A stretch of DNA of 64,000 nucleotides from Tribonema minus (Eukaryota > Sar > Xanthophyceae > Tribonematales > Tribonemataceae): positions 62,001-126,000 of the forward strand of contig JAFCMP010000008.1 of NCBI GenBank assembly GCA_017506865.1. Reading direction: 5' to 3'. The position numbers and the translations under genes are program-made. Below, piece by piece: positions 8,127 to 51,738 of the stretch. A model generated the notes under the pieces. That model did no database searches, had not been told where the DNA came from, and was given only the letters and a program-made list of their open reading frames with translations. Within the stretch, counting starts at the first letter, position 1. Each line of letters starts with the position of its first letter.

Positions 8127-11100
8127 ATGGTGCAGCAGCGCGCGCAGCACCTGAGCTCCACCGACGGCAGCGATACGGAGGAGGTGCCGGCGGCAGACGC
8201 GCGCGGCGAGCACGCAAAAGGAAATACAAAGGGGGTGAAGGCGGAGGCGCAGCAGTGCTCTGCGACGGAGGGCGATGCGTGGCCCGCAAAGCACAGGCAC
8301 CACCTCGCGGCGCTCAACCCGGTGCGTGCCGTACTTGAAGTTGAACTTGTATTTTAATGTTGATCTTTGCGCGCCGGCCGCGTGGTGGGGCGGCCCTCTG
8401 TCTGGGAGTGCCCTTGCGACTTGCGCAAGACACGGAAAAAACTGTTTGGTCGTGAGAGGAAACGCATGATGCAGTAAACGTGCACAGTACTTGTGGCACA
8501 TGGGGGGGCACAGGCAGGATACCCTCACGTCAACGCAAGTTCGTCGCATGGGTGCACACCGCAGCTGACAATGGCGAATGGCCAGGCATACACACATAAC
8601 AGTACCTATGCGTGGGGGGTACCAAACACCCATACCTTTGTCCCCTCTCCATCACCAGCTCTGGCATGCGTCCAGCAAACCCCCATGTGGTCAATTGTCA
8701 TTCGTTGTCATTTGTCACACCGAAAAGCACGTGCTGAGCCAAGAGTACTCCAAGCGCAACAGTCGAGGCACTGGCGCAAAGCACAAGCGCGAGTGCAGCG
8801 GTAAGAGGGGCGCAAGCACGAAGCAACGTGCGCCGAACTAGCGAGGTCGTCAGAGCCCTGCCGCCGTTGCTGCGCAGCGATACTACACATTTCCTGCTCT
8901 CTGGCGCGCGCCCAAGCCCTGACGGATGAGCACTGACATGAGGGTACGGGTATGTAACCTGTTCGTGCGCGCCCCATCCTTTTCATTTCTCAGATGCGCT
9001 ACGGCTCGCCCTTGGTGGATGAGCGCTGACATGAGGGTATGGGTATGTATCCTGCCTGTGCTCGTGTTTTTGTCAGATGCGCTACGGCTGGCGAGCTGTG
9101 GGTGGCATAGCGGAGCTGGCCATTGAGGGGCGACTGGCGGGGCCGGAGCTGGCGGCGGCGGACAAAGCGGCGCAGGATATGAGGCACTGCATCATTAAGG
9201 TATGTATTAGTCATGACATATACGTACTGCATAGACCTGTAGTATGACGCCTACATACCATATACATAGCATCATCAGGGCATGGCGCATACATATCGTA
9301 TCATAACACTCCAATACAGTACCATGTGTCACACAGCGGAGCTGGCGGCGGCGGACAAAGCGGCGCAGGATATGAGGCACTGCATTATTAAGGTATGATG
9401 CATACATACCGTACCGTAGCAATGTAATCTAGACATTATCACGCATCATGCAGCGGAGCAGGCGGCGGCGGACAAAGCGGCGCAGGATATGAGACTTGTC
9501 ACCTAGAGCTCTACGATCTTTTGATTCGTTTTCATATGAGGCACTGCATCATCAAGGTATGTACGAGTCATGACATACACGTACTGCATAGACCTGTAGT
9601 ATGACGCCTACATACCATATACATAGCATCATCAGGGCATGGCGCATACATATCGTATCGTAGCACTCCAATACAATACCATGCGTCACACAGCGGAGCT
9701 GGCAGCGGCAAACAGAGCGGCGCTGGATACGAGGCACTGCATGTGTATCATTACTGTGTGGCGCGCACCGCATGTATGTATGTATGTAAATCAATCGGGG
9801 CAAACACCGCCGAGGCTACGAGCTTGTCAGTGCAAACTACTTGGCACGCCACCATATATATGTAGTGGTTTACTACACTTCAAAGTACCTTGCATGATGA
9901 CCGACCGTATTGTAGTCGTTCAATACACTGCCACACCTCACACAGCGGAGCCTGTCGGCGGCAGACAAAGCCGCGCAGGCTACGAGGCACTACACCATTA
10001 TGGTTTGACGCATACGTGCTGTATAGACCTGTAGTATGAGGCCCACACATCCCATACAGACACCATGTTTTTTTGCAGAATGGAGCTGGCGTGGCGGCGG
10101 ACAGAGCGGCGGAGGATGGCACTGCATCATCAGGATGCGGCACACGCGCGTGTATGTGTAGTTGTTTGCGACACGACATACCTTGCAAAACTGTTTTATT
10201 GTAGCCAATGCACTACCTCACACAGCGGAGCTGTTGGTGTCGAGGCACCTTTGTGAAGGTATACAATGCACCGTGGTGGGGTGCTTGCCGCAACCTCCAT
10301 GGCACGTTTATGTGACATCGAGCTAGAAATTTGCTGAGCAATGGCGTGCGTGCGCTCCACGCGTCGGCGCAGCAGGCATCTTTGGGTAGGTATACTCTCA
10401 AGCACAACACCGCAACGGGGTAATGGTCACTAACCCTAACCTCAACCTCAATTCAACCTGGGCTTCTGCAGGTGATGTTCCCCCTGGACAACGACGGCAT
10501 GCACGTCTTCAGCGTTGAAGTGTTGTGTGAAGATGGCGCGGCCACGGCAGCACTCAACTTCACCTCAATCAGCACTGTCCGCAACAATAACCTCAACTTC
10601 AAATCTGACCTGCAGGTGACGTTCCCCCTGGACGACGACGGCATGCACGTCTTCAATGACGAGATTCTGTGGGACTTGCTGAGCGATGGCGCGGCCACAG
10701 CGCTGGACTTTGCAATAACGTGTGCGCGCCGCTACGGCCTCACCGCGGAGCAGACGGCGGCGCTCGCGGGGGATGTACAGGCGCAGCTTGACAGGTGTGT
10801 GCATACATGCAAAGTTTGTGCATGCATGCAGAGGGTTTGCAGCCTGCTTTCTACTGATAAGATGGTGGTAAGAAGTTGGTAGCTTGCGGGGACGTCCAGG
10901 CGCAGCTCGCCAGGTGTGCGTTTTCGTGCATACATGCAAATTTTGCGCACTATGTTTTGTAGGCTAAACATACATGGTGTCACCATGTTCGGAAGGCTCA
11001 ATGTAATGTTCTGTAGGTTGAACATAGCGGGGGATGTGCTGGCGCAACTCGACAGGTGTGTTTTCGTGTTTATACATGCAGAGTCGCTTTGTGCAGGTAT

Positions 11101-14100
11101 GATATTTTGAAACAGTAGCTCGCGGGGGACGTCCAGGCGCAGCTCGACAGGTGTGTGCATACATGCAGAATTTGGGTGCTTTGTTTTGTAGACGAACTTC
11201 AACGATGACCGGGGGTGTTTTGTGTTTGCATGATCACCGGGGTAACATGCGGGCTGACCATAGCTCACGGGGGACGTGCAGGCGCAGCTCGACGGGTGCG
11301 TATTCGTGTGCATACATGCAGCATATCTGCACTTCATGTTTATCGACAGAAGCAGTAATGAGACGCAAAAAAGTTACTGTATTTGTGCAGTTTCTAATAC
11401 TTCTAGTAGTCATGAATGTAAAGTAATTGATCCAGATCTTCGCCATATGTATGGAGCTCGTGCATACTTACCCCACTGTACGTCACCTACATGCCTGCCG
11501 TGCCCTGAACGCTGCCCCACTGTTGCCATGCAGCGCGCATACGTACTTACCAGCTTTACATACTGTGTAGCTGCATACCTGCTGTGCCCCGCAGGCACCT
11601 GAGCGCTGCCCCATTGTCCCCATGCAGCGCGCTCAAATACTTGCCCATTGCACCCACATGCCCCCCGCCCCCGCAGGCGTCTCACACGCGTCCTGCAAGA
11701 GCGCACAGCACGCATACGTACCGACCCGCTGCACCTATACCTACGTACCTGGCCCCCGCCCCGCAGGCAGCTCGTGCGCGGCCCGCAGAGCATGCAGCGC
11801 ACATAAGAACTGTACGATCTTTTGATTCGTTTCCACATGTACTAACCCGCTCTATGTCTACAAACATACCTGCCCCCCCGCCGCCGCAGGCACCTCGCGC
11901 GCGTCTCGCAGAGCGCGCTGTGTGCATGCGCACTTAACCGCAGTACCTATAGTGGAAGTATGCATTTGCCGTGCCCCACAGGCACCTGAGCGCTGCCCCA
12001 CTGTCCCGATACGTACTTACCCGCTTCATCTATACCTACTTACCGCCCCCGCAGGCACCTCGCGCGCGTCCCGCAGAGCGCGCAGCAGCGCTGCCCCACG
12101 CTCGGCACGTACGGGCGCACGCGCACCTCCGGCGGCGGCGGCTTCCTGGAGAGGGGGGTCGGCGCACGGGGGTCGCGGCCGCGGACCATGGAGGTATGTG
12201 GGATCGGGATTGGAGTTGGGATTTGAGCAAGGGTTAGGGCCAGGGTTTGGGGTAGGGTTGGGTTAGGGTTAGGGTCGCAGTAAGGGTTGGGCACGCGCAA
12301 GCGAGAGGGGGGTCGGCGCACTAGGGTTGCGGCCGCGAACCATGGAGGTATGTATGTACGGCCGGGGTTAAGACTAGGGTTAGGGCCATGGTTCAGGGTA
12401 GGGTAATGGTATGTCAGGGTCAGGGTTAGGATAGGGCATGCGCACCTCTGGCGGCGGCGGCGCCCTGGAAAGGGGGTTCGGCGCACGAGGGTCATGGCCG
12501 CGGACCATGGAGGTATGCACAAGTGTAGCAGTGCGCCTCGCCGGCTAGTTTTAGAGTAAGGGTTAGTGTCAGGGTTCCGGGGTAGAGGGGGGTCAGCGCG
12601 CAAGGGTCGCGACCGCGGACCACGGAGCTATGTATGTAGCAGTGCATGCCGCCGTTGTTAGACTTCGAAGCAACAGGCCACCTCTGGCCGACGCCGATCT
12701 CGACAGTAGTTGCATATCTCAACAGTGTTATGACACGCTACGGCTAAGAAGCACCTGCTAGTGTTCATAGTCACCAAAACCCAGTTTTCAAACTGCCAGT
12801 CTGACACCCACAACCACTACATGCAGCAAGTACTGTATCACGATAATTGCTGCTGAATCACAATGACGTATGCAGTGGAGGAGTACGAGCCGCCGCTCTC
12901 GGAGTCCGATCTTGACGGTTACGATCTCGGCAGTCACGTCGAGCTACTGCGTGATAAGCACCTGCTGGTGGTCAGAGCACAACAGGATGCTAATGAGACC
13001 TATGACCACTGTCATCGACCAGTACATACAGCAATCATTATAACAGCTGCCGCTTAATGACAATGATATACATACAGGTGGTGGAGTACGGACCGCCTCT
13101 AGCGGAGGCTGATCTCGACAGTTACGTAGCGCGCCTCAACGTGGAGCTGCAGCCGCTCAACCGCCCCGTGCAGTACTTCTCGGAGAACACGTGTCACATC
13201 TGCCAAGTAATACTTGATAATGCGCCTGTTGTGACGATTACGCAGGTGGAGGAGTACAGGCCGCCGCTGGCGGAGGCGGATCTGACAGTTACGATCGTGG
13301 CAGTTACGTGGCGCCGCGCTGCCGCGTAATAAGCCCTGTGCTAGTGCTAGTCTGACACCCACAACAAGCACACACAGCAACTATCATGACAGTTGCTTGC
13401 TGACTCACGATGATTGACTCATGATGATATACGCACAGGTGGAGGAGTACGGGCCGCCACTGGCGGAGGCCGATCTTGACAGTTACGTAGCGCGCCTCAA
13501 GATCGAGCTGCAGCCCCTGAACCGCCCCGCGCAGTACTTCTCGGAGAACACGTGCCACATCTGCCACAACCGCAAGAAGGACGTCTTCAACTGCTGCTCC
13601 ACGGGCAAGAACAAGCACAACTACTGCGGCTTCCACGTCATCTCCAAGTGAGTCAGTCAGTGAGGAAGTCAGTGAGTCGAGTGAGTGAGTCAGATGCTGA
13701 TGATTGCACGGACGACCCTGGGATGCGCTCTCCAGTGCTTCGTGCAGCGCCAGTTTTTGCCTGCATCAACGAATGGTGCACTTGACCACGTACTTGAGGT
13801 TAGGTTTAGGGTGTACCATTCTTGGATACTGTAACGAATTGCTAAGTGCTGGCTTCGGCGCTAGGGGTATCGGGCAGGTGTGAGCGTGGAAGTGGCGATT
13901 TGAAGTATGTTGCTGTCGCTGTATGAAGTTTGTCGCTCGCTTGAGTATAGGGTTAGGGTCAGGCGCAGCCACGTTCAAAGGCAGCGCCGCTTACGCCATC
14001 ACCGTCAGAACTCAGCGGCAGCGCGCTGAGGCAGTGTACAGTGCTGAGCGCTGAGTCAGTGCTCAGCGCTTCGCTCTGAGTCAGTGCTCAGCAACAGCGC

Positions 14101-17100
14101 TGAGTCAGTGCTCAGCGGCAGGAACAGAGTCAGCGCTCAGTGCTCTGTTGTCCATGCAAATGTCGCCGCGATGGCCGTAGGTAGTGGTGATTAGCCATCC
14201 GCGTGGTGTTTCGCGCGCGCGAAGACAGCGATCCCTGCAGTATCGCGTCGCGTTGCATGCAAGACTCACGTTGAAGCCATGCCGCGCAATGATTGTACAC
14301 GGTGGTTTGTAGGCAACCAGGAGTGTTACGTAGCTCTGGTGTAAGCTGGCGTGCGGTCGCAGGTCTGGTGGGGAGCCTGAGGGGGTCTCAATGCGCACTC
14401 GCTTTCGAAGCAGAAGCACGCACACCCTGCTGGTGCAGTTTGTGCCGCTGTAGTGCCGTCGTTTCCGCGAGCTTGCGCAAGCGCCGGTGCCGTCCGCTTC
14501 GTGGTCGCTTTGTCACCCACCCCAGCGGGGTAACCGGCTTGTCACTTGCACGGCCGTGCTGACCCCCCCCCCCCCCTCCCCCCCCCCCCCCCCCCCCAAG
14601 TACCAGGTTCGGCGTCTGCGTTGTTGCGCAGCTCTCATCGAAAACCCTACTTGCAACACCTAACCCTGGCCTTACTTCCCGCACATTCGCTCACGTGTAT
14701 TTGACACTGCTTCTATGATGTGTGCACGCTCTGCGATGTGCGCGCGCTCTGCAATTCGTGCGCGCGTCACAATGAGGGCTCCTCACGGGCCTCTGTGGCG
14801 TATGACGCAGCAAGGTTGTCGCAGCGAACACGCAGTATCACGCGCAGACAAGCAAGTAAATCTCATTCACCGCATACCCCCGCCGCCTTTATCCCCCTAA
14901 TGCAGCGCCACTACCCCCCCCCCCCCCCCCCCCATCCCCCCCCGCACCGTGCCCCCGCCGCGTCAGGTTCGGCATTCCCTCCGTCGCGGCGTTGCGCGCC
15001 GACCCCAGCCTCTGGACGGAGTGCCCCGCGTGCGCGCTCGTGTGCCCGTGCACGGCGTGCAACAAGCTGCTGCGCGACTCGGTGCGCCGCGATCGCAAGC
15101 TCAACCCGCACCTCTATCCCGAAACCGTCGAAGCCACCCCCGCCAACGCTGCCGCCGCTGCCCCTGCCGTCGCTGCCGCCGCCACCCCTGCCGCCGCCGC
15201 CGCCGCCACCGCGCCTCCTGCCGCCACCGCGCCTCCTGCCGCCGCTGCTGCCGCCCCTGCCGCGGCACCGCAGCCGCTGCCGCCGGCGCCGGCGGCAGCG
15301 ACGGCGCCACCTGCCGCTGCCAGCAGCAGCGCTCCGAGGCAGCAGCAGCCGATGGTGCGCGGCGGCCGCGGGCGCGGGCGCGGGCGCGGCTCCGGCAGGC
15401 CCCGCGCCGCCGCCGCCGCCGCCGCTCCCGCCGCCGCTGCCGCAGCTGCTGCGGAGCGGGACGAGGTGTGGCGCGACGAGGGCCTGCAGTTCTGCGTCGT
15501 GTGCGACGGCAGCCGCGCGCCAAACGTGCGGTGCTGCGCGTGCCCGCGCGCGTTCCACACGCGCTGCGCGAAGCCCGCGCCGCCGCCGCCGGCGCTGCTG
15601 CTCGGCGGCGGCAGCGGCGCGTGGCGCTGCTGCGACTGCGAGGGGCCGCTGCGCGGCGGCATCGCGCCGCCGCAGTTCCAGGTGCGCGTTTGTGTGTGTG
15701 TGTGTGTGTGTGGGGGGGGGGGTTGGTAGGGGTACGGGGAGCAGACGCGTCGGAGCGCATCATGCAGTCAGGGTTACATAAAGTACTATGTAGTAGGGTA
15801 GGTGCGCCAGTATGCATCTTATTTGCTTGTGTAGATGATGTCAGGGTCGGTGTAGCTGGCTCAGCATGTTTTGTGTGCGCCGCGCGGGCACGCTGTCAGG
15901 CATCAGAACCTCAAGCATCATAAGTTTGACACATTGAATCAGCCAGACGGGCCGTTCGACCGTAGCGGCGCGTTGAGCCGTCATTTTATTTGCACTTTCC
16001 TTACCTACGAATGTGCCTACGAATGTACCTACAATTCGAAACTAGGGCCAGGGCAGACCCACTTCTACATCCGCTCCTGACTTGGACCTACTTAGCTCTT
16101 GAGGCTAGGGTCAGGGCAAACCTACATATCCTATGTTCGGGCAGCGAAGCGCCGCAGCGGCGGCAGCTGCGTGGCCTACTGCGCAGCACAGGTTTCAAGC
16201 CAAGGTGAGGTTATGGCGCTCGATTGCTGCCTTGCGAGTACTGTGCAAATATCTTGGGTTAGGGTCAAGGTTTCATACTTTTGAAGCAAGAACGTGCAAG
16301 TGCGCCGCCCAATGTTCTCTGCAGGAGTTAACAAATTCGCTGCTACTCTCCCCCTGCACATTGCGCAGGGCACCAACCACCTGCGCGCGTGCCGCGCACT
16401 GCTGTCATTCATGAGGGACAGCGCCTTCGCCAATAACGTGGTGCCACCGCCACGTCAAAGCTGAAGTTGACTAACATCAACCTACAACTTCAACAACAAC
16501 TTCAAGGATGCCACCCCGCTCTCTCTTCAGGAGCCAACAACTGCGCTGCGATCCCCACCTCGTTTGTCACGCAGGGCACTATACCTGCACACGTGCCGCG
16601 TGCTGCTCGACTTCATGACAGCGCCCTCGCGGAACTTCGCGCGCCACCGCCACATCAAAGTTGAAGTTGATCAACTTCAACTTCAACAAAAACTTCAACA
16701 AAACTTCAAGTATACTCACAGCTGCGGTGTCGACCCCTTCGCGTTCTTCACGCAGGGCACCAACCACCTGCGTGCGTGCCGGACGCTGTTGAAGTTCATG
16801 ACGGACAGCGCCCTCGCGGACAACTTCACGCACCCCGTAACGGCCGACGACTTTGGCGCCGCCGCCGCTGCGGAGTGGCTGCGCTACGAGCGCGTGGTGC
16901 CGCCGGACAAGCGCATGGACCTGAGCACTGTGCTGAACAAGCTCAACAGCCACCAGTACGGCGTGGAGGGCGACGGAGGTATGTATGTATGTAGACTCTG
17001 TGTGTGTACGTTCGTACTTACCTTAGGTTACTGCCATGTATGTTTTTTTATGGCAAGCGTAATTTACTGCCATGTGTGTTTTTTGTTGGCAAGCACATGG

Positions 17101-29033: not shown

Positions 29034-29282
29034 ATCGGTGGCATGAGTGCGCGTCTATGATGTGTATGATTACATGTGGTATTGCAAGGTGAAAGTTGCT
29101 GTCAACGTGCAAAAACATACGTGCATACGCCCCGGACGGTCCACGCGCTTGCGATCCGGCCTTGGACTGCCGCCCCATTGATGAATGGCAAAGCGTTTGA
29201 CAACCCTGTTTGCCTGTGTCTACGAACACCTTTTGTCATGATCATCACCACGGAATGCTTGCACCAGGTGCTGCTTCAACCG

Positions 29283-31344: not shown

Positions 31345-31400
31345 CGCCAGCGCTCAGCGCGGACCTCTGGACGCGCGTCTTCCGCCTCGTCGGCCCCGCG
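31345..31400 (+). repeat. Acceptor echo of the F-box exon
   Basis: CAGCGCGGACCTCTGGACGC followed by GCGTCTTCCGCCTCGTCGG repeats the acceptor and start of the exon at 31467-31507. The preceding CGCCTGTGACGCTCC block is also repeated, at 31327 and 31438. The copy then runs into unrelated sequence. Confidence 0.85.
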
Positions 31401-31468
31401 CTTTCTACCCCTCTGACTACCACATCACCCTTTCCTCGCCTGTGACGCTCCGCTGCCACAGCGCTCAG

Positions 31469-39400: not shown

Positions 39401-41930
39401 CTGAGCGCAGGCCCTTCACAGGCGCTGCGCGCACCACAAGGGTAGCGTGATGCGAGGAAAGCAGTGATGCTATCACCACCCAGTGGCCACCTTCAGTATC
39501 GCCGGCGGCGTGTACCACCACGTTGAGTACACAAACACAACGCCCTGCTGCACTCAGCGCAGGCTCTCCACGTGCGCCGCGCGCACCTTAAAAGTAGCGT
39601 GATGCGAGGAAAGCAGTGATGCTGTCCTTAAGTGCAGCAGCGGCGACCACGGTCATTGGTGGAAGGCACTTGCGGCTAACCATCCCTTGTCACCTACAGC
39701 TCTACGATCTGTTGATTCGTGTTCATTAAACAACAATCACCTTCAGTATCGCCGGCGGCGTGTACCACCACGTTGGGTACACGAACACGAGGCCCTGAGC
39801 CCAGCGCAGGCTCTCCACGTGCGCGGCGACGGCGGGCGCGAGCGCGCCCTCCCTATACGCCGTCATGTACGTGCGCAGCTCCTCGGCGCTGAGCGCTGCT
39901 TCAAAGCCCTCCGCATACAGGTCTGCGACCCTCACGTCGTGCCCTGCCGACGGGCAGCGCGGTGGGCGAATGTTAGATATTTGGTGCTTGTTGGCCACTA
40001 GTGAGGGTAATCTAATCGAATGTGAGTGGTTTTGATTGTTTTGTTGGCGCAGCTCGTCCGCGTTGAGTGCTGCTTCAAAGCCCTCCGCGTACAGGTCTGC
40101 GACCCTCGCGTGCCCTGTGGGCATACAGCGCGGTGAGCAAAAGTTCAATGTTTGGTGCTTGTTTGCCAGTAGTGAGGGTAGTTTAATCCTAGGTGATTGT
40201 TCTGGTTGTTTTGTTGGCGCAGCTCCTTCGTGCTGAGCGCTGATTCGAAACCCTCCAAATACAGGTTGGCGACCCTCACGTCGTGCCCTGCCAACGCGCA
40301 GCGCCGCGGGTAGAAGTTCAAATATGAAGTAGCCACTTGTAGTTGCTACATGAAGCCTTGCGGTGAGCCAGGCCGGCATGAACAATTGCAGGTAGGCTTA
40401 GCGGGCGGCTCGCTCAGCGCTGAGCGCTGCCTCAGAGCCCACTTCTGTAAAGGTTCGCGACCCTCACGTCGTGCTCTGCGGGCGGGCAGCGTGGCGGGCG
40501 AATATTAAATGTCAAGTAGCCATTTCCAGTTGCTACATGAAACCATGTGGTTCCCCGGGCCGGCATGACCGATTGCAGGCCGGCTTAGTGGGCAGCTCCC
40601 TCCGCGCTGAGCGCTGTCTCAAAGCCCTCCAAGTACAGGTCCCTGACCCTCACATCGTGCGCTGCCGGCGGGGCAGCGCGGCAGGTGAAAGTTCATTTTG
40701 ATGTGGCCACTTGCAGTTAATACATGAGATCTTACAGTTCCCCGAGCCGGCATCACCAATTGCAGGGAGGATTAGGGCAGCTCCTCTTTGGCTGAGCACT
40801 GCCATAAAGCCCCCTCCCCTTTCGTCACCCGCACTTGATTGTGCGGACAAGTGAAAATTTCATGGCTACATCAATCCTTATGGGCTTAAGCTCTGCGACA
40901 GCGGATAGAGCGCAATGAATGAATGCTTGGCTTGATTGGCATAGAAACCCCTACAGGTTTCGGTCGGCCACCCTCGCGTCATGCCCTGCCACGGCAGATG
41001 GGGCGATTTGGGTAGTGCCGCATGCGCGTGGCACTCAGCAAAGAGGTGATTGAACAAATGCAGCCAGCGGAGAGCACAAGGTGTGAGGACGCATGAACAC
41101 AAATGCATCAAGCGCTCAGTTTTTGAGGGGCATTAGTTCAGTTTCTTTTCATGTTGTCTCATGATATGGGTACTGTCACTGATTTTAGTTGCTGCGCTAA
41201 TACAGGTTGGGGACATTGAGGCAGTGCCCTGCTGGCGGGGAGGTGATGGCAGCATGACACACGCCAGGCATGGCTATAGAGGCTAGGTTCAGGGTTAGCC
41301 CTAGAGGCTCTCAGCTGACGAGTTGACGTTGACAAGATTCTGAGCCTCGCCGCTTCGCTACTGAGAGGACCTTGAATGCCTGATTGATGCAACAAGGACC
41401 TCTGCTCGCAGATCAGTCAGCATTTTGTTGTTGGAGCGTTGACTGTGGGCCACAAAGCAGGTGCAGTGCCTTGTGCCACATGCGAAGATGATCGCTTGAA
41501 AGACTAAACTGGCTCACAGAAAGATGTCGCACTTCAAGTGAACCAATGCAGCAAGGTAGGTACATAAATTTGCTTTTCTGTGGCGTAGCTGCAGCTGTTT
41601 TCTGTAGGAGCTCGGACCCTGACATCCGCTTTTCCAGCATACTTGAAGTACAATCTGAATTTGGTGCTTCAGAGAACATGTCGTTGGCGTAGGCTCACCG
41701 CGATCCTTCAAAGCTGACACGACAGCATCTCTCAGCGCACAGCTGTAGCTGCTGCCTTCGTGCACGGGGTGGGCGTACAATAGAAGCACGCGCTGCTCGC
41801 CCCCATCCGCATTGCGAGCTGGAGGGAAGTGACAAGAGCACTTGTTGAGAGCCAAGCTGAAGGGACCAGGCAGCGAGCGCAGAGGCCTGAATGCTGCGTT
41901 TATAACGGCTTGCTGCAAGCCGAACAGCAT
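36427..41930 (-). CDS. Flavodoxin-fold NAD(P)H:quinone oxidoreductase-like protein (4 exons)
   Basis: Minus-strand exons: 41930-41699, 39943-39741, 38672-38530, 36604-36427. All phases agree and give 251 residues with a TGA stop at 36429-36427. After an N-terminal extension of about 45 residues, possibly an organelle targeting sequence, the product follows the Flavodoxin_2 family in order. The FMN/NADP-fold start is RVLLLYAHPVHEGSS. Then come HDVRVADLYAEGF, FVYPTWWYTPPAILK joined to GWFDRCLCPGATFD, LTNIKRIGVVSTYG and GDPGRRLISRGLR. The family reduces quinones by two electrons using NAD(P)H and FAD or FMN, and a role in quinone or redox detoxification is inferred. The ATG at 41930 is the first in-frame ATG; an upstream exon cannot be excluded. 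The introns carry the most extensive echo arrays of the window. Confidence 0.85.
36620..37920 (-). repeat. Minisatellite grown from an acceptor echo
   Basis: Units of about 50-75 bp read, on the minus strand, CTCTCTAATGCATTCTAAAC followed by AGGCAGCACG and CCCCCCGTTCTCAACCCCC. The first part equals the branch-like and acceptor region of exon 4 (TAATGCATCTAATCAG|GCAGCACGTG at 36600-36620). At least fourteen ATGCATTAG-type cores are visible. Three units, near 36745, 37150 and 37885, extend further and also copy exon bases (CACGTGCAGTACGTGGG-like), so the array is a series of acceptor echoes that expanded. A G run ends it near 37930-37955. Confidence 0.8.
37957..39285. other. Introns of the quinone-reductase gene with telomere-like tracts
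   Basis: Apart from exon 3 (38530-38672) this stretch holds scattered CCCTAA or TTAGGG repeats (38103-38125, 38450-38525, 39031-39090) and no other recognised gene. Confidence 0.5.
39288..39625 (-). repeat. Three donor echoes of quinone-reductase exon 2
   Basis: The exon 2 end (minus strand: TGGTGGTACACGCCGCCGGC GATACTGAAG|gtgat) is repeated at about 39495-39590, 39343-39420 and 39285-39320. The first copy extends about 90 bp into the exon, while the farthest keeps only about 35 bp. Downstream spacers (AAGCAGTGATGCT, GTAGCGTGATGCGAGGAAAG) are repeated too. Confidence 0.85.
39688..39731. mobile_element. Third copy of the 40-bp insertion sequence
   Basis: CTTGTCACCTACAGCTCTAC followed by GATCTGTTGATTCGTGTTC is about 90 percent alike to the insertion at 9496-9535. 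It lies just inside the donor side of a minus-strand intron. No clear target duplication is visible here. Confidence 0.55.
40030..41240 (-). repeat. Six acceptor echoes of quinone-reductase exon 2
   Basis: The exon 2 start (GHDVRVADLYAEGFEAALSA) is echoed on the minus strand at about 40040-40125, 40215-40300, 40425-40480, 40595-40670, 40955-41000 and 41195-41240. The first two are near-complete over about 24 codons (ARVADLYAEGFEAALNADEL; DVRVANLYLEGFESALSTKE). The last two keep only a dozen bases around the acceptor. The first units are about 180 bp long and include repeated intron sequence such as TTTGGTGCTTGTT. Confidence 0.9.
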
Positions 41931-42059: not shown

Positions 42060-45000
42060 ATGAGGCCGCTGGTCAGGCAACGTGGAGCGCTGCCACCCCT
42101 GCTGCTGTTGCTGCTGGCTGAGAACAGCCTGCCGTTCGCACCACCGACAGCTTCATGGCGGCCGCACACCTCATGTAGCTCTGGAGGCATTTGTTGCTCT
42201 AGCAGCACCAGATGGCGGCGCTGTACCAGGCTGAGCGCAGCAGGCGACAACCAGTCTGGCTTGGAGCGGGCAAGGCAAGCAGCTCTGGCGGAGGACCGGG
42301 AATGGTTCCTGCAGTTCATCGGGGATCCCGACAGCCCAGATGACGCACCTGCTGCAACAGCAACTGCATCTACCCGGCCACCACGGCGTGAGCAGCAGCA
42401 ACAGCAACAACGCAGGAGGCGGCGAGATACATACTGGGATGATGCAGATCCCGACGAGGAACAACCAGTACCAGCTTCAGCATCAGTGGAGGAGTTCACA
42501 CCTGCTGCGTCCGCGTGGCAGCCGGGCCCCGAGACTGCTGACGATACAGGGTTTGTGATGGAAAGAGGAGAGGACTTCGACAACAGAGAAGCAGAGGAAG
42601 TGGGGGACGACATGTTGGAGGACCAAATGGAGCTGACGGCAGACGAGACTGCTCAGCTGCTGACCTTGGGGTTCTCCGAGGAGGAGGCGACTTCGCTTAC
42701 GCCAGACATGGTCGGAATCATACTGGAGAGACAGGTAACGCTGCTTTTCTGACAATGCCCTGCTGGCATGCGTTGTCCAATGCTTGAGCTTTGATGCCCC
42801 TCGAGCATGCTGTACATGAGCGCGCCTGTCGTTGATGCCACAGCTGTGTGACGCTGGACCTTCAGCTCCATCAAGACATGTATAGCTCCATTGTTTCCAT
42901 CCCAATCCAGAGTACACATGCCAGTGTGTGCTCACATGCAGAATGAGTAATGTGCGCAGTCGCTCGTTTCTCTAGGATAGACATAGAACTTCAAATCTGA
43001 CTTTGAACATTTGAAAGTTTAGTGTCGCAAGAGATCCTCACCCCTCAGGTCAAGCGCCCAGCCAACATGCCAGCACACCGACTGCGCTTGCACGGGTTTG
43101 ATCCAGTGCTCTGTTGCTCACGCTTGTTTATCATTTGGTAATCCAGCTGTGCAGCTGTAATGAATAAGGTATGACTCAGAAACTACCTAGCATCAGTGTT
43201 CTGTTGGCATTTCGTTTACATTTCTGAGTCTCAGGTCAAGCAGCCATCAAGGCGCATACTTGTGGACTGGGAGACATTACATGCGGACTCCATGTTGCAA
43301 ATCTCCTCTGTTCTTCTGAGGAACTCTATCTTCTTTTCTAACTCGCAGGTCAAGCGGCCATCGGGGCGTATACCTGCGGACTGGGTGAGCTCGCGTGCGT
43401 CTGCTCTCTCGCGCAGTGGCGCCGGCGGCGGCTTTGAGCGCGGCGACGACGACGAGTCAGACCTGGACATGAGGTGAGGAGTCTCTGCCAAAACATGCTG
43501 CATTCAAATAGACCTCTGGCAGCCCCTCTTCGATTCCTGGCATCATATGTTTATGCCGCACATGGCTTACGCACATATCGTCAGTGCTGCGTGCGTGCAG
43601 TCTACCTGGGGGCCGCTAGACACTGTGCTGCTCCAAGACTGACTGCACCCTCTGCAAGGCAGCAGTGGACATCTGATGCGCATACGGGTTCGGTCAAAAT
43701 TTGATAGCAGTCCGGAGCATGCGTGCTCCTAGGTTTGGTCAAGGCGTCCCAACTGTCAGGTTGTGTTTTGCTTTTGTCCTCAACTTCAATTTCAATAAGT
43801 CATCACGCCACTGATCTCCTTGCATGGGTGTGCTGCAGAGCAAGGCGCTGGAGGTTGGCGGCGAGGTGCACGCTCAAACCACTTCAACTTCAACTTCAAC
43901 ATTCAAGTGTTTGTTCCCAACACTGACTTCCTTGCTTCGGTGTGTTACAAGTAAGAACCGGAAGTCAGGGAGCACTTGAACCCTAAGTGATATCTGCCGA
44001 CCCCACAAACTTCAACCACAACATTCTCATGTTGTCAATGATTGCCCCGGTGTCGATATGTTGCAGTGAGGAGCTAGAGGTCAGCGATGACTTTGTGGAA
44101 TCGCCGTATGATGGGGAGTGGGAGGAGGAGGACTCAAGCTGGCAGGAACAGGCGTCAAACAAGGTAAGTCCTGATGACCATGTTGAACAGCGCTTCTTTG
44201 CAAAGTGAGAGTCGACGTGCAGTGAGTCATGTCAGCTTGTTAGTGGGAACACGCATGGCCGGATGAGGAATGAGTTGAACAGTGCCAGTGGTGGGGCAGG
44301 GCAGGCGTGTGATAGGCCCAGCCCTATGGTTAGGGTTGACGCCTGGAAGGGGGCATCCAGCAGAGTAAGACAGAGGCATGGGAAATGGCAGTATTACAGC
44401 AGGCAACCAGCACAGGATGACAAAAAGGCTGACGATGAAGTCTGACGTTTGTCTGGAGTTTATTTTCCGACTTGCTGCGACTTGCACCGCGACCAGCAAG
44501 TACATGTTGGATGAGGCACGTTGTTGGAGCTGCAAACAGCACTGCACCCTCAAGCAGGTGCACACGTTGCTGATGCAGATGCACAGTAAGGTAGCTCCGC
44601 TGTTGCATGCTTGTCGTGCTTACCGACGCCCGCCCACTATGCCGTGCGCTCAACGCGCCAGCACACACCCTTTGCAGCCAAAAACACTTCAACACTTGGA
44701 AGTTACTGAAGTTGTTGAAGTAGGAGACTTGGCGCCAGCGTGCGTGCTCGTCCTGATCGCCAATGGCCGCTCACCGCCGTGCTGCAACAGAACGCATTCA
44801 GGAAACAGGCGTACATCTCGTTGCCGGGCAGTACATACCTCTACATCAACCAGCGACCACTGGGCGCACTGCAATGCAAACCCGCGCTGGATCTCAGCAG
44901 TTGAACATGTGGCGTCATTCCTTGAAGTAGGCGACTGGCGCCCAGCACTCGTCCTGACCGCGGATATAGCCCGCCAACATGTGAAGTTATTTCTTGAAGT

Positions 45001-48000
45001 AGATGACTAGCGCCAGCACTCGTCCTGATCGCCGATGCTATTAAGTTATAATCAGTCAGATAAGTATCATATCTCATTGCTGTGCTGTAGGCGGAGCGCA
45101 TCCGGACGCGCCGCCAGCTAGCAGACGCGTCCGCATACGACGATGATGACGGCGGCGATGACGGCGCCGACGCTGACGACGGCGAGTACGACGGCAGTTA
45201 CGGCAGTTACGGAATGCGCGGGGCGCGCAGCGGTGGCCGCGCTCAGACTGGCGGCGGGGAGGAAGAGGATGACTGGCTAGACGAGCGTGCGGAGGAGCGG
45301 CGGGGTCGTAGTGAGGGCGGTTACGGCGATTACGCCGAGGAAGATGATTGGCTGGAGGAGGGGGAGGGGGAGGGGGAGGGGGGGAGGGGGGGGAGGGGGG
45401 GGAGGACGGCAGCGGGTGGCCCAGCATGGACCGGTTCAAGGAGATGCTGCGCAAGGTGAGCGTGCCGATGATACGATACGCATAAAAGGGGGGGGGGGGG
45501 GGGGGGGGGGCAGTGGCTACTCGCTGATCAGCTCTGGTTCGCCGCAGCCGTTGTGCCTTTTAAGGAATGTGATAAACACGGTCATCAGCAGCCAGCTGTG
45601 CTCTCAAGCAGGTGTTGTTCGGTACGCGAGAGCCAACTTTGGTGTCCCGTGAAGACTTTGTGAAGTGCGTGCTGTGCTACCTGAGTAATGTCGCTAACAG
45701 TTCGGGCAAGCAGCGAGGGCCAGGGCTGCGTCTCGGGAGCCTGAGCGCTACCTACTTGTAAACAAGTAGGGCAAGGGTAGGTAGGTATGATGAGCAACGC
45801 TGGCGTTCCTGTACCGCATTCAGCAGGGGTTCCCCCCAGTGGCAGCCCCCCGCCGCGTGGTTTCGCCCGTCTGTGGCGGTGTGTGGTGGGCATAGAGTTG
45901 AACTTGAAGTTATGATATAGCCCGGTTCATGATGTGAAGCAAAGTCATACATAGTTGTGTTTCTTGTAGTGCGTACGTGCAGCTCTTGCGCTTGTCGCGA
46001 GTGGGCCCTGGAGGTGAAAGCAGTATAATAACCAATTTGCGTTAACAGATTGTTGGTCAGTAGTAGTCGCTGGGGAGTGTCACCCCATGCATTTCCCATT
46101 TATGTCTTGAACTTCATTGCTAACCCAGGCTGCGGGCGCAATGCGTTGTGATATTTTTGGCGCTTCAATGCCTGGCGCGCCTGAGCTCATGTGCGCGCAT
46201 GCAAGCGCCGATAGAAAGCCTCATGGTCTGGCCCCAGCTTTGCAAACGGCTTTCTGGTTCTTCCTTATTGTAAACCAGGCAGAGCGCAGGTTGCTGTCGG
46301 CAGAGGATTTCTTGGTTCTTTGCCGATAAATAACGCCTGAGCTTATGCGCACGCAGCGGAGAACAGCCTCACACGGCAATACAAACTGCTGATCGGATTC
46401 TGGACTTATTCAGAACAGTCCAAGCAAGAGTGCTGTGCTTCAGTTTGTACAAAATGCTATTCCGTTCCCCGCCTTGTGCTTCACCGATGGTAGGCGCCAG
46501 AGCTTATCAGCACACGCAATGGAGGACAGCCTCATGTAGCAGTTCAAACTGCTGTTCGGCTCCTGGACTTGCTCAGAATAGAGTACCAGCAAGGGTGCTG
46601 TGCTGTAGTACAAAGTGCTATTCCGTTCCCCGGCTTGTCTGGAATCGAGTACAGCAACCGCGTTCTGTGCTGCACCGTATATTTCAGCTCTTGTACTGCC
46701 TCGCCCCCCCCCCTTTTGCCCCTACGGTGGGTGCGTAGACGGGGGCTGCAAGGGAGGGACAAGCTCCACCGCTGCCATTCCTACGCTGATGCGCACGCGT
46801 GACAGGCGCCTAGCTTTGTCCAGAACCGAGCGCAGCAACCGCTTTCTGTGAGCATGCAGTAACCGCTTCACCGCTGACGTTCCTGCGCTGATGCGCGCGC
46901 GTGACAGGCGAGCCTCATGCACCTGGACCTTGTCGGCCCGAGCTCAGTATGTAATTGCTTTCTGTGCTTCACCGCTGACGTGCCTGAGCCCATGTGCGCG
47001 CCCGCAAGCGCCGATAGACAGCCTCATGGTTTGACCCCCCAGCTTGTTGAACCGCTAGTAGTTTTCAACTCACCTTGACAAGTCTCGAAGCGAGCATAGT
47101 ACTGCTTGCTGACGTTCCTGAGCTCATGTGCGCGCGTGACAGGAGAGCCTCATGCGCCTGGACCTGGTGGGCCCGAGTTTTGCGGAGTCGGTTGCCAAGG
47201 AGAACCAGATGCGCATCAAGGCGTACGACGCGTGGCTCAACCTGGTCAGCAACGGCATAGGCGAGGACATCGTCAATGGGAGGGACCGGGGGGATGAGGA
47301 GGGGAAGCAGCGCTCGGGACAGGGGGGCAGCAGGCACGTGGAGCGCTGCTGTACTTTCTCTCTCCTATGTTAGAAAACATGAGCTTTTTGGTCTATAATG
47401 AGGCGCGTGCATGTGACCGCATCATTTTGCATGATGACGCGCAGCCAAACCCGCTGGCAAACGGGACAGGCGGCAATGCCAGCGATGGCCTTGAGCCTCA
47501 TGCCAATCTTAGGGTTAGGGTTAGGGCTAGCCCTAACCCTACCCCTAACCCTAAAACCTAACCCTAACCCTACTGTTTGGTTAACCCTGCCGCTGGGGCC
47601 AAAGCGAGGACCAGAGAAATGGGGAGTTGGGCGTCTTGCAGCGAAGCTCTCACACCTGGGGGTCCCTGGGTGTATTGAGCGTCGGTGTATGTATATATAG
47701 GCAGACTGGAGGACACTCGTGCATGACATCATTTTTTTCATACGTACACTGTACAGGCGTGCGTACATATGTATGCACATGGAGGCGTGTGCAGCGCCAT
47801 GCCTGTATTCTCATTGGCAGCGGGGTAGGTACGTAGGCAGACACTGCAGCAGCGCTCAGGCCAGTTCGTCCTCAGATAACCTCCCATGTCAGGGACATGG
47901 GCATGCCATGAACTTCGTATTGACGACAACGTCGATTCAACGGCGGATTTCCATCTGGCAGTTGCGCAACGCACGGAAAAAGTAGTGTCATTGCTGTGCG

Positions 48001-49210
48001 ATTGCAGCTTCTTCCGCACCGCACGCGCTGAAGCGCAGGTGTCGCCGTTGCAGCAGCGCTCAGCGATCAACACGCGCGCATACGTACGTACCCCTGCAGG
48101 CAAGCGCGCGACAGCAGCGGCCGTCAAAAACCGCCCTCTCCCTCCTACGACAACGATGAAGACGGTTACGACAACGGTTACGACGATGACAACGATGACG
48201 ACGACGGCCTCGGCATTGGCGAGAGCATTGCGACATTTATCGGCGATGGCTGGAAGGCTATCACGGAGTCGTATGCGGAGGTGGCGGAACGGGGCCGCGT
48301 GGAGCAGGAGGAGTGGGATAGGGTGCGGCGCGCGGAGGCGGCGGCGGCGCGCGCTGAACGCGAACGCGGCGGCAGCGGCAGGCAACGTACGTAATTTGGC
48401 GGCATTGTATATATATAGACATGTCCATTTTGTTGATGAATTCTCATTGACAGTATTATAGTGTAATGGGGGCGTGGAGCAGGAGGAGTGGGTAGGGTCA
48501 GGCGTGCAGAAGCGGCGGCGGCGCGCGCGGAACGCAGCAGCGGTGGCGGTGGCGGCAGGCAACGTGCGTACATTGGCGTCATTGTATTGTATGTAGATGT
48601 GCGTGTGTGCGAAACGCACTTGTAACAGTACACTGCCTGTTGTGTTGTACGTCTCTCCTATGCATGTTCAGCTACAAGGTTCTTGATGAGAGTAATTTGG
48701 CATACATACATACAGCTGCAACTCATCAGTGTCATACAGTGCACACAGTGGTTCCGCATTTCCTGCATCAATGCTGTCGCAGCCTGTGTGCACATACACG
48801 CTGCATGACCTTCATGGCTGGAGTGATGCGTTATTAGCGCCTCTCCTTGTTTCAGGAGCCCCTCTCGCCGCACTCACTTCTGTGTCCGTTGCAAACCCTG
48901 GCCCAACGCAGGCGCGCGGCGCGCAGCCGGCGGTACTTCAACAGGAACTTCAACTCGGCCGCCGCCGTCCATGCGCGAGCGCCTGTACTATGATGACGAC
49001 CAAGCTATCGCTGACAACGTCGATGGTGATGACGCCGAGGAGGCCTCGTATGATGCGTATGCGCAGAGACGAAGTGAGCCCCCTGTAAAGGGGGTGAGGC
49101 GGGGGGAGGGGGAGGGGGAGCCCAGGAGGCGCCAGATGGCGCAACGAGGGGGTGGGCAGGGGGCACCGGGGGGGCGGCGGCGGTGGGACGTTGAAGATGA
49201 CGATGTGTGA
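42060..49210 (+). CDS. Acidic protein of unknown function, possibly plastid-targeted (7 exons)
   Basis: Exons: 42060-42734, 43349-43473, 44067-44163, 45091-45455, 47143-47333, 48100-48386, 48912-49210, about 680 residues. Phases agree except within exon 4: the frame must change by one in the G-rich run at about 45359-45405, probably an indel there, before it resumes as MDRFKEMLRK at the donor. The leader RQRGALPPLLLLLLAENSLPFAPP is a hydrophobic core followed by a Phe motif, like bipartite presequences for secondary red-type plastids. The body has acidic, repetitive segments (YDNDEDGYDNGYDDDNDDDD), a short helical segment (DLVGPSFAESVAKENQMRIK) and FSEEEATSLTPDMVG. I do not recognise the family. 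The intron after exon 5 appears to use a GC donor (CAG|gcacgt), which alone gives the right phase. An AATAAA lies near 49463. Confidence 0.65.
43046..43280 (+). repeat. Two acceptor echoes of exon 2
   Basis: CTCAGGTCAAGCGCCCAGCC (about 43046) and CTCAGGTCAAGCAGCCATCA plus AGGCGCATACTTGTGGACTG (about 43231) precede the true CGCAGGTCAAGCGGCCATCG at 43345. The nearer echo matches about 40 bp of exon, the farther about 15. Confidence 0.85.
43830..43980 (+). repeat. Two acceptor echoes of exon 3
   Basis: TGTGCTGCAGAGCAAGGCGC TGGAGGTTGGCG (about 43829) and TGTGTTACAAGTAAGAACCG GAAGTCAGGGAG (about 43938) mimic ATATGTTGCAGTGAGGAGCT AGAGGTCAGCG at 44057. The second echo has lost the AG, having CAAG in place of GCAG. 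Confidence 0.65.
44705..45040 (+). repeat. Three intronic repeats before exon 4
   Basis: A block of about 45 bp (GAAGTAG(G/A)(A/C)GACT...GCGCC, AGCACTCGTCCTGA(T/C)CGCC) occurs at about 44715-44765, 44930-44970 and 44996-45036. Unlike the other arrays I see no match to the adjacent exon, so it may derive from intron sequence only. Confidence 0.6.
45488..45512. repeat. G homopolymer run
   Basis: An almost pure G run about 25 bases long, just downstream of a donor site. Runs like this are prone to length errors. Confidence 0.8.
46150..47060 (+). repeat. At least six acceptor echoes of exon 5
   Basis: Copies of GAGCTCATGTGCGCGCGTGA CAGGAGAGCCTCATG (real boundary 47120-47154) are seen near 46180-46225, 46340-46375, 46500-46540, 46785-46810, 46885-46945 and 46975-47030. 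The copy at 46885-46945 reaches about 40 bp into the exon (GCACCTGGACCTTGTCGGCC). A spacer of the type TGTGCTTCACCGCTGACGT is repeated with them. Confidence 0.8.
47505..47577. repeat. Telomere-like tract, head to head
   Basis: TTAGGGTTAGGGTTAGGG is followed at once by CCCTAACCCTACCCCTAACC and related repeats, again inside an intron and again with the orientation inverted in the middle. Confidence 0.85.
48470..48590 (+). repeat. Donor echo of exon 6
   Basis: GCGTGGAGCAGGAGGAGTGG (48473-48492) and the following GCGCGCGGAACGC...GGCAGGCAACGTGCGTA copy the last 90 bp of exon 6 with its donor. The shared segment also includes ATTTGGCGGCATTGTATAT / CATTGGCGTCATTGTATTG just beyond the donor. Confidence 0.85.
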
Positions 49211-49812: not shown

Positions 49813-51738
49813 ATGAAGGCCTACGCGGTGCTGGCGGTGCTTGCAGCCACGCTTGCCCTGGCAGCAGCTCAAGACTCGCCGCAACCCACGCCGACGCCTT
49901 CTGGCGGCGGTGGAACCGAGGGTGGCGGCAGTGGGCGAGCGCGAGTTCGTCTCAACCGCGTTTGCAGGGATCAGATCGACGCCTGCCGACAGGATGACAC
50001 GTGCCGCTCCTGCGTTTCCAATCGGGAGAACGTAAGCAACAGTAGAAATGACGGCCGCCGTTTTATCTTGCGCATTTGCCAATTGTTCACTGACTCTCAC
50101 CGAGCGCTTTGTCCGGAGCAAACAGCCTCACTGCATGCACCGCCGTGACGTGGCAAACTGAGTAAATCATCGTGCTGATTGATCATAGTGCTGCAGAGCA
50201 GTGCATATCTTGCCACTTCCAACAATTTCTCCACCGCTTTGGCAATCTTGACATAATAACCTCGTGAGCATGCTGCGCCTGCAATAGTGCGTCTATGAGC
50301 TCCTGCTTGAGAGTTGTCAGAGAAGGAGAGTATCTGTGGGAACAAGTACATAGCTCAACATTTGGCTGGCATGCGCATCCCATTTTTGAGTTGGCTTGTT
50401 CTGTGCCATTTGGCTCGTCTTGCACCGCGGAGGTTGTCATGCGATTGCTGTTTATGCAATTTGCTTGAGAGTGTAATGAAGATACATGGCTTACGACGCA
50501 GATTCGACTTTGGAATAGCTGGAGTTGCAGCAGCACGCAATGACATTCTGCAGAGCAGACACATCACGAAATTCACTCAGTGGTGGTCGTATACTAAATG
50601 CTTCAAATGCAGTTAATGGCACAACGACCATTCTGACCTATATCATCAGCAATGACACATAGAACTTGCATTTGCACAATGTGGTCGCACTGCATCATCG
50701 TCGCCCACTTGTGACACGTGCTACTCGCAGCAACAGCGGCAGTAATGCCTCACAGCACATGATCGCCACTTCGGTTCGTTTCTTGTCATACCCATTTACA
50801 TTTCTCTGCTTGCAATTCAACCTTCAACCCTCCACCTTCCATACATACATCCTTGTAGACACTCACGTACGCGTCTCTGTCTACATTCCAACTCTCGCAC
50901 GCCCCCACAACTTCCGCGTGTACCTACAGGCGCAGCCTCCGAGCGGCCTCGAGCACTTCAACTTGCAATCCTTGAAGTTGAACAGGCATACTCGCAAGCA
51001 TTCTTTGCCCTCGCAGCTTCCGCGCGCACACCTACCTACCGGCGCAGCCCAGCGATATCGCGCGCTTCAAGTAGCAACACTTCAACTGGTATATTCGCAT
51101 GCATTCTTCGCCTGCCTACATTCCAACTCTCGCACACCTACCGGCGCAGCCGCCCAGCGAGATCACGCATGTCAAATTGAAAATCTCAAACAGGTACTCG
51201 CATTCATTCTTCGCCTACTTACATTCCAACTCTCGCGCACCCTCGCAACAGTTCCGCGCCCACATGCCTACATGCCTACAGGCGCAGTCGCTGAGCGAGA
51301 TCACGCATTGGAAATCGCAGTGCTTCAACAGCTATACACGCATTTTTTCGCGTACTGACAGTCCACCCTCGCACCCCCCTGCAACACTTCCGCGCGTACA
51401 CACCTACCTACCCACAGGCGGAGCCCCCCAGCGAGATCACCTGCGACGCCATCCAGACCTTCCTGGAGCAGACGTTCCCCCAGTGCTCAGCGAGCAACGC
51501 CGCCGTGGCAGCGCTCGAGCAGTGCGTGCTGGGCGCGCTCGGAAGCGCGTTCAACCTGCAGTGCGGCAGCGGCGGCGGCGGCGGCAGCTCTGGCGGCAGC
51601 ACTGGCGGCACCGGCGGCGCACCCACTGCGCCCACTGCACCCACCGGTGGCGCACCTACCGGCGGGGCACCGACCGGCGGCGGTGGCAACACGCGTCGGC
51701 TTTTCTCTGTGTACCAGCTGCCCGACCTCATGCTGTAA
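49813..51738 (+). CDS. Secreted eight-cysteine Gly-rich protein, paralog 1 (2 exons)
   Basis: Exons 49813-50031 and 51418-51738 join in phase 0 to give 179 residues. MKAYAVLAVLAATLALAAAQ is a signal peptide, followed by a Pro/Gly linker. Exon 1 ends with VCRDQIDACRQDDTCRSC and exon 2 starts with a helical Cys domain (ITCDAIQTFLEQTFPQC...SNAAVAALEQC). The cysteine spacing is C-x6-C-x5-C-x2-C-x14-C-x13-C-x12-C-x12-C. A Gly/Thr/Pro-rich tail follows, ending RRLFSVYQLPDLML. The neighbouring gene at 53632 has exactly the same spacing. Four disulfides and an extracellular or cell-surface role are inferred. I do not recognise a named family. Confidence 0.85.
50920..51330 (+). repeat. Four graded acceptor echoes in the secreted-protein intron
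   Basis: The real boundary CTACCCACAGGCGGAGCCCC CCAGCGAGATCACCTG (51408-51443) is preceded by copies near 50925, 51040, 51137 and 51277. The two nearest keep (C/T)GAGCGAGATCACGCA or CCCAGCGAGATCACGCA, the next has CCAGCGATATCGCGC, and the farthest only CGAGCGGCCTCGAGC. Each unit also copies the upstream ATTCCAACTCTCGCACNCC and CTTCCGCG(C/T)(A/G) segment. Confidence 0.9.

What the first reader, a model, noticed from the sequence alone, without database searches (positions are those of the whole stretch)
8127..51738. Exon-echo arrays: introns built from serial decaying copies of exon edges
In at least six unrelated genes (SNF5/PHD/bromodomain, GH26, F-box/ankyrin, quinone reductase, the acidic protein at 42 kb, the eight-Cys secreted protein), introns contain two to more than a dozen copies of the adjacent exon boundary. 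Copies keep the splice site, 15-140 bp of exon and the neighbouring intron bases. They lie outward from the exon, upstream of acceptors and downstream of donors, and generally resemble the exon less with distance. Because it recurs in both gene orientations, it looks like a genome-wide process rather than one accident. I know of tandem exon duplication and of introner elements, but not of this pattern as a general rule for intron content.
Basis: partly seen in the sequence, partly recalled or inferred. Interest (0 to 1): 0.95.

Follow-up and report, generated by a model that had tools for sequence, protein, structure and literature searches.

The report
Exon-edge copies stacked in algal introns
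In this algal genome short stretches of DNA are often copied side by side, and when the copied stretch spans the border of a gene's coding part the extra copies end up as decaying leftovers in the neighbouring intron, which is a plain but little-documented way for introns to grow.

Summary
In light-harvesting (LHC) genes chosen by family alone, 9 of 96 exon edges match their own intron, against 0.23% of 4268 shuffled exon-intron pairs and 0 of 96 reversed edges. Over LHC, chaperonin and window genes I found 105 copies in 43 arrays; 90 of 105 align through the splice site. Copies are tandem units, median spacing 156 bp, and resemble the exon less with distance (14 of 18 arrays).

In LHC genes, 45-bp tiles inside introns are duplicated about as often as exon edges, though outside the arrays only 19 of 480 are. 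Copies decay as neutral DNA: 50 of 54 gaps break the frame, and splice dinucleotides survive at the neutral rate.

Best reading: frequent short tandem duplications. When one straddles a splice site, the exon-proximal copy keeps the protein intact and the outer copy becomes intron, so introns lengthen (LHC median 959 versus 450 bp). One such event is published in potato; serial use in many genes is the new part. Splice choice is inferred; no RNA was available.

The parts
9077..10130 (+). SNF5-gene exon 9077-9199 and six matches to its 3' (donor) edge at 9337-9392, 9454-9493, 9534-9556, 9694-9742, 9946-10002, 10082-10130; the 9454 and 9534 pieces look like one copy split by a dispersed element at 9494-9533
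8994..9009 (+). copy of the 5' (acceptor) edge of exon 9077-9199
10472..10511 (+). copy of the acceptor edge of SNF5-domain exon 10616-10794 (95% identical)
10882..11295 (+). four copies of the donor edge of exon 10616-10794 (10882-10913, 11027-11055, 11118-11150, 11263-11295)
11677..11918 (+). three copies of the acceptor edge of exon 12055-12193 (11677-11710, 11767-11798, 11890-11918)
12303..12627 (+). three copies of the donor edge of exon 12055-12193
12673..13293 (+). four copies of the acceptor edge of exon 13439-13647 (nearest 94%, farthest 83%)
16369..16645 (+). two copies of the acceptor edge of bromodomain exon 16756-16978
17090..17395 (+). three copies of the donor edge of bromodomain exon 16756-16978; the exon-proximal junctions 16978/18101 give a bromodomain with profile positions 1-51 then 55-83
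18329..18501 (+). two copies of the donor edge of exon 18101-18224
24795..25066 (+). 67-bp tandem array ending about 12 bases inside the GH26-like exon that starts at 25055; barely touches the exon
31351..31401 (+). copy of the acceptor edge of the F-box/ankyrin exon starting 31462 (51 exon bases, 98%)
32737..32773 (+). copy of the acceptor edge of ankyrin exon starting 32893
40047..40985 (-). five copies of the acceptor edge of the quinone-reductase exon 39741-39943 (40047-40114, 40217-40287, 40405-40475, 40588-40661, 40962-40985)
39277..39581 (-). three copies of the donor edge of the quinone-reductase exon (39491-39581, 39340-39429, 39277-39308)
43235..43270 (+). copy of the 36-base exon 43349-43384 of the acidic protein gene
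46908..46942 (+). copy of the acceptor edge of the exon starting 47143
48465..48563 (+). copy of the donor edge of the exon ending 48386
51042..51304 (+). three short copies (18-23 exon bases) of the acceptor edge of the eight-Cys exon starting 51418

Best explanation
The copies are relics of ordinary short tandem duplications (units mostly 80-250 bp) that arise at a high rate in the non-coding DNA of this genome. A unit that straddles a splice site gives two tandem exon edges. The transcript that still uses the exon-proximal site encodes the same protein, so the duplication is tolerated, the outer copy becomes intron, and the intron grows by one unit. The event repeats, often next to the exon, and older copies decay neutrally, giving a graded series. 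Shown: tandem units of exon edge plus intron, neutral decay of the copies, the distance gradient, longer LHC introns where arrays occur, and two LHC paralogues without the array. Inferred: which splice site is used, that selection merely tolerates the arrays, that exon-definition splicing (real exons have a partner site, copies as a rule do not) picks the right edge, and that break-repair fill-in and end joining makes the duplications.
For: Own-intron matches far above shuffled and reversed controls. Spacers between copies are also homologous, 77% identical against 64% for shuffled spacers, n = 50 pairs in 17 arrays, so whole units were duplicated, not exon pieces alone. Several recent duplications away from modelled exons are exact head-to-tail repeats (82 bp in L053, 113 bp in L050, 79 bp at window 33296). 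Tiles inside LHC introns are duplicated at 6.5-14.5% by distance from the edge, LHC exon edges at 10% (9 of 90), exon interiors at 1.3% (2 of 151), flanks at 3.3% (61 of 1839). Copies are neutral: 50 of 54 gaps are not multiples of three; copy-lineage changes per site 0.056/0.051/0.075 over codon positions 1/2/3, against 5/1/22 changes on the exon lineage; GT/AG intact in 65 of 77 site-blind copies against 82% expected. Introns with copies are longer: LHC 959 against 450 bp, p = 0.001. Paralogue L061 lacks the L059 array (547 against 843 bp) and L036 lacks the L037 array (660 against 966 bp). Exon-proximal junctions give contiguous domains.
Against: No RNA, so splice choice is untested. Outside the arrays LHC intron tiles are duplicated in only 19 of 480 cases (19 of 399 in introns without copies, 0 of 81 in introns with copies), so much of the duplicated intron DNA sits in exon-anchored arrays. 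In the chaperonin and window sets edges exceed tiles: 14 of 47 edges against 91 of 431 tiles, and 15 of 28 against 118 of 324; both sets were partly chosen for copies. Exon parts of copies are more alike than their spacers in 16 of 17 arrays; this fits repeated sourcing from the living exon, but local alignment also inflates it. Third codon positions of copies change slightly more than first and second (102 against 77 and 70). Some recent repeats are not flush head-to-tail. No other species or strain could be compared.
Confidence: 0.75

Rival explanations
1. Edge-targeted duplication: something tied to transcription or splicing (for example breaks at R-loops or at stalled polymerase near splice junctions) makes tandem duplications preferentially at exon-intron borders, so that the living edge is the repeated source.
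For: Anchored arrays exceed the random expectation in the pooled set; duplication is rare in LHC intron tiles outside the arrays (19 of 480); edges exceed tiles in the chaperonin and window sets; several 'internal' arrays start or end within 15 bp of an exon (CCT_C5 intron 5, CCT_C279 intron 4, CCT_C235 intron 1, LHC L055 and L062); gradient with distance; exon parts better kept than spacers.
Against: In the set not picked for copies, 6 anchored and 6 internal arrays (LHC); LHC intron tiles, arrays included, as often duplicated as LHC edges; tandem growth places the youngest copies side by side, so a gradient is expected without targeting.
Confidence: 0.16
2. Functional copies: alternative or mutually exclusive exons, or splicing decoys kept by selection.
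For: Copies keep usable GT or AG in 65 of 77 cases, 36 of 38 for acceptors; few in-frame stops, 4 of 105.
Against: 50 of 54 gaps break the frame; copies are partial exons by their reach; retention of the dinucleotide equals the neutral expectation overall, and donors are intact in only 29 of 39; near-flat codon-position rates.
Confidence: 0.05
3. Introner or other mobile elements inserted in introns.
For: The genome does hold short dispersed elements, one inside an array at 9494-9533.
Against: Array sequence is private to its gene in the two cases searched: a 1.2-kb chaperonin array finds only itself in 158 Mb, and the 42 listed matches of window 9050-10700 elsewhere all fall in one 85-base stretch (40 of 773 candidates scored); copies match the adjacent exon, not other genes.
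Confidence: 0.02
4. Assembly artefact.
For: Tandem repeats are error-prone, and the assembly holds duplicate contigs (L022/L023 99.88% identical, L009/L010 100%).
Against: Copies differ from the exon by 0-27% of exon bases, with indels, and lie on 13 contigs; misassembly would give near-identical copies.
Confidence: 0.02

Closest known systems
Tandem genomic duplication across an intron-exon boundary (potato RdRp gene, Ma, Lan & Niu 2016, PMC4974935; abstract and Results section read)
   Same: A tandem duplication covering the end of an intron and the start of the next exon; a small formerly exonic piece becomes intron; splice signals inherited from the parent.
   Different: One event in one gene, shown by RNA reads, making an extra intron. 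Here serial arrays in many genes lengthen existing introns, without RNA proof.
[quoted passage not shown] Rogers 1989 and Hellsten 2011 known only through these papers)
   Same: Tandem duplication neutralised by splicing.
   Different: There the duplicated segment is exonic and creates a new intron; here the unit spans an existing splice site and extends an old intron.
Small tandem duplications made at DNA breaks by CST/Pol alpha-primase fill-in and end joining (PMC8355091, passages read)
   Same: Short head-to-tail duplications without need for repeats or homology; a candidate source of the units.
   Different: Shown in mouse and human cells; nothing here tests that machinery.
Introner elements (Amoebophrya, PMC7789003, passages read; Micromonas and Aureococcus as cited there)
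   Same: Repetitive sequence bound to introns on a genomic scale.
   Different: Introners are families shared between many introns, with inverted repeats; these arrays match their own exon and, in the two searched genome-wide, nothing else apart from one inserted element.
Tandem exon duplication / mutually exclusive exons (recalled)
   Same: Repeated exon sequence in adjacent intron.
   Different: Here mostly partial exons with one splice site and frame-breaking indels.

Membership tests
Tandem genomic duplication spanning a splice site | Tandem units holding both exon and intron sequence | tested here: met
   90 of 105 copies align across the splice junction; spacers homologous, 77% against 64% shuffled
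Tandem genomic duplication spanning a splice site | Absent from the same intron of a close relative | tested here: met
   Two LHC paralogue comparisons, L059/L061 and L037/L036; orthologues in other species not available, so gain and loss are not told apart
Tandem genomic duplication spanning a splice site | Extra copy removed by splicing in the mRNA | not testable with these tools
   No RNA data; only contiguous domains at exon-proximal junctions
AGGT intron gain | Duplicated segment wholly exonic and a new intron created at a new position | tested here: not met
   Units include intron sequence and sit beside existing splice sites
Introner elements | Same sequence family in introns of many genes | tested here: not met
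   0.23% of shuffled pairs match; a chaperonin array finds only itself genome-wide; other arrays not searched genome-wide except window 9050-10700
Introner elements | Terminal inverted repeats and target-site duplications | not tested
   Not examined for the arrays
Mutually exclusive / duplicated exons | Whole exons with both splice sites | tested here: not met
   Exon reach of copies is shorter than the exon length used, save one 36-base exon copied whole without its donor; a second site made anew in a copy was not looked for
Mutually exclusive / duplicated exons | Copies under coding constraint | tested here: not met
   50 of 54 gaps not multiples of three; near-flat codon-position rates
Break-repair small tandem duplications | Arise at double-strand breaks by fill-in and end joining, little junction homology | tested here: inconclusive
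   Five recent flush duplications have junctions from a 1-base gap to a 3-base overlap; no mechanism test possible

The most novel reading that the evidence does not exclude
Exon-intron borders in this alga are duplication hotspots: a transcription- or splicing-coupled process repeatedly copies the living exon edge outward, so that introns grow from their ends by an exon-fed conveyor belt and carry a dated record of the exon's past sequence.
Probability: 0.16. Interest if true: 0.88.

Novelty: new variant of a known kind. Interest (0 to 1): 0.62.

Why it matters
Intron length varies widely and its growth is usually put down to transposons (general knowledge). Here a visible share of intron DNA (13% in LHC genes) lies in serial tandem duplications of exon borders, with the parent still in place. 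That makes intron growth datable copy by copy. It also poses a splicing question that can be tested directly: how the spliceosome picks the right edge among up to eight similar decoys, which suggests recognition of whole exons. Gene predictors and homology searches may misplace exon ends in such genomes.

Tried and rejected
A fixed 'ruler' of about 58 exon bases seemed likely from early arrays, but over 41 arrays the reach is broad, 16-99 bp, so I dropped it. Apparent over-conservation of splice sites in copies (86 of 89 intact) disappeared when copies were found without using the site (65 of 77). Functional exons, introners and assembly artefact were rejected as above. Species identification failed: a nuclear rbcL fragment is of the red type, so the host looks like a red-plastid-lineage alga; one LHC probe gave only distant LHC chains, and one search was run on the wrong strand by my mistake and says nothing. 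A haptophyte is my guess from recall only. Ladder trees were not built. Literature: (nine searches of one open-access library, read as listings; one search returned no paper) listed no description of serial exon-edge arrays in introns; subscription papers are mostly not held.

Rows dropped and choices made. LHC: 31 gene models with 59 introns; 48 introns in 27 genes kept after a splice-site filter. Of the 92 LHC matches, 28 regions were fetched (20, 8); the rest were not. CCT: five of about ten gene clusters fetched; C51, C5 and C135 were chosen because copies were visible in the hit table, so CCT rates are inflated. Window edges: 29 chosen by reading the sequence, not all edges of all genes. 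Low-complexity tiles were left out. Reading frames were set by codon usage; four arrays had weak frame scores and were kept. Spacer pairs of very unequal length were left out. The kinesin table (122 of 191 candidates scored) shows two partial hits just downstream of a fuller hit (C511, C246); it was read by eye only.

Full report
Setting. The window is C8:62001-126000 of a 158-Mb genome in 554 contigs. A nuclear fragment of a red-type rbcL and many LHC matches point to a red-plastid-lineage alga; the species is not known to me. In the LHC and chaperonin exons used, 89% of third codon positions are G or C, while LHC introns have 53% G+C, which makes exons easy to see.

Is it there? In the window, local direct repeats outnumber inverted ones (125 against 21 pairs, 104 of the 125 under 1 kb apart). 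I set 29 exon edges by reading the sequence and searched each edge (up to 150 exon bases plus 20 intron bases) in its own intron. 18 of 29 edges have copies, 45 in all. Five of the six named genes pass; GH26 has arrays, but they include only about a dozen exon bases.

Is it more than chance, and more than this window? I took two gene families. For LHC genes (PF00504) I fetched 28 regions, built spliced models for 31 genes, and kept 48 introns of 59. 9 of 96 edges match their own intron, against 0.23% of 4268 shuffled pairs and 0 of 96 reversed edges. With other scoring the figures are 9 of 93 against 13 of 8329. For chaperonins (PF00118) copies can be seen in the hit table itself, for example three successive hits starting at profile positions 51-53 in C51. 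In five fetched loci 16 of 49 edges carry 40 copies, but three of the five were chosen because of the table; the other two give 1 of 24.

Anatomy. Over all sets there are 43 arrays and 105 copies; 90 copies align across the splice junction; the median spacing is 156.5 bp (92 intervals); per-array median exon reach runs from 16 to 99 bp (41 arrays). The clearest cases are C135 intron 4 (five acceptor copies, 90-98% identical), C5 intron 3 (eight donor copies), L042 (three) and L059 (four at this threshold). Spacers between copies are themselves related (77% against 64% when shuffled), so the unit is exon edge plus intron.

Decay. Identity falls with distance in 14 of 18 arrays with three or more copies (mean rho -0.45, p = 0.011), and nearest copies beat farthest (0.919 against 0.881, 24 arrays, p = 0.014). 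Changes on the exon lineage fall on codon positions 1/2/3 as 5/1/22; changes on the copy lineages as 77/70/102 (0.056/0.051/0.075 per site). Of 54 gaps, 4 are multiples of three. Splice dinucleotides in copies, found without using the site, are intact in 65 of 77 against 82% expected; acceptors 36 of 38, donors 29 of 39. Copies therefore behave as non-coding DNA.

Is the exon edge special? In LHC introns, 45-bp tiles are duplicated at 6.5-14.5% by distance from the edge (59 of 559 in all), edges at 10% (9 of 90), exon interiors at 1.3%, flanks at 3.3%. Against this, outside the array spans LHC tiles are duplicated in 19 of 399 (introns without copies) and 0 of 81 (introns with copies), chaperonin tiles in 15 of 154 and 11 of 136, so arrays at edges carry much of the duplicated intron DNA; and in the chaperonin and window sets edges exceed tiles (14 of 47 against 91 of 431; 15 of 28 against 118 of 324). 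For units of the observed size dropped at random over the LHC and chaperonin introns, 33-40% should cross an edge; I counted 25 of 39 arrays crossing (the 25 and 14 are my tally of the lists). Exon parts should stay visible about twice as long, because the exon side hardly changes; allowing for that the expectation is 50-57% and the difference is not significant (p = 0.08-0.42). Using intron sequence alone, 17 of 30 are anchored (p = 0.01-0.06), but 6 of 12 in the LHC set. The pooled set is biased by my choice of chaperonin genes. An edge preference is possible and not shown.

Consequence. LHC introns with copies have a median of 959 bp, those without 450 bp (9 and 39 introns, p = 0.001); arrays hold 3482 of 26962 LHC intron bases, 13%. 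In LHC plus chaperonin genes together the share is 21%, inflated by the choice of genes. Paralogues differ: the L059 intron holds an array where L061 has none, and L037 where L036 has none.

Mechanism. A tandem duplication across a splice site leaves one site beside the intact exon. Using it restores the old mRNA, so the change is nearly neutral and the outer copy becomes intron. Repetition and decay give the series. For acceptors the correct site is the last of several, for donors the first; since copies as a rule lack the partner site of a full exon, recognition of whole exons would explain correct choice. This is inference from gene models (for example a bromodomain continuous across exon-proximal junctions), not from RNA. 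Short duplications of this kind are known products of repair of breaks with long overhangs (PMC8355091, passages), and one duplication across an intron-exon boundary is published in potato (PMC4974935, abstract and Results). A 2012 review names tandem duplication as the only proposed mechanism of intron gain shown in vivo (PMC3443670, passages). Introners differ: they are families shared by many introns (PMC7789003, passages), while the two arrays searched genome-wide are private to their gene, apart from one inserted element.

Verdict. Real, found on 13 contigs, and a striking natural series; most likely a known mutational class caught at splice sites and run many times over, hence a new variant of a known kind. 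The bolder reading, that exon borders are duplication hotspots, is not excluded.

Noticed in passing
window 9494-9533, 39686-39724, 11806-11832; L067 2152-2190; L046 1084-1120: A short dispersed element (core of about 40 bases, some copies preceded by a further shared ~25 bases): 42 matches elsewhere in the genome listed, 40 of 773 first-look candidates scored. The 9494 copy interrupts an exon-edge copy and is flanked by ATATGAG on both sides, like a target-site duplication.
   Followed up: partly
window 12230-12275, 17840-17976, 33763-33790, 39042-39084, 47527-47572: Interstitial TTAGGG-like telomeric repeats, the first two inside modelled introns of the SNF5 gene; they could be traces of break repair, like the duplications.
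   Followed up: no
window 5392-6051 and L048 5782-6430: A roughly 330-bp tandem pair (92% identical in each, with reverse-complementary junction bases) on two contigs: probably one dispersed element with an internal duplication; the two were not aligned.
   Followed up: no
window 684-1202, 3005-5385, 18955-19115, 28632-29358, 52863-53132: Dispersed repeat families, 73-99% identical between copies, in direct and inverted orientation, probably transposable elements.
   Followed up: no
window 54984-56109 and 61170-62277: 1.1-kb direct duplication at 78% identity, 6.2 kb apart, possibly neighbouring paralogues.
   Followed up: no
C70/C489 (L022/L023) and C490/C296 (L010/L009): Near-identical stretches on different contigs (99.88% and 100%), probably unmerged haplotypes or assembly duplicates.
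   Followed up: partly
C334:714136-714324 (L002): Nuclear fragment of a red-type rbcL gene with one stop, a plastid-to-nucleus transfer.
   Followed up: partly
window 25250-25257: The GH26-like exon may end at a GC donor (CAG|GCGAGT); seen by eye, not searched for elsewhere.
   Followed up: no
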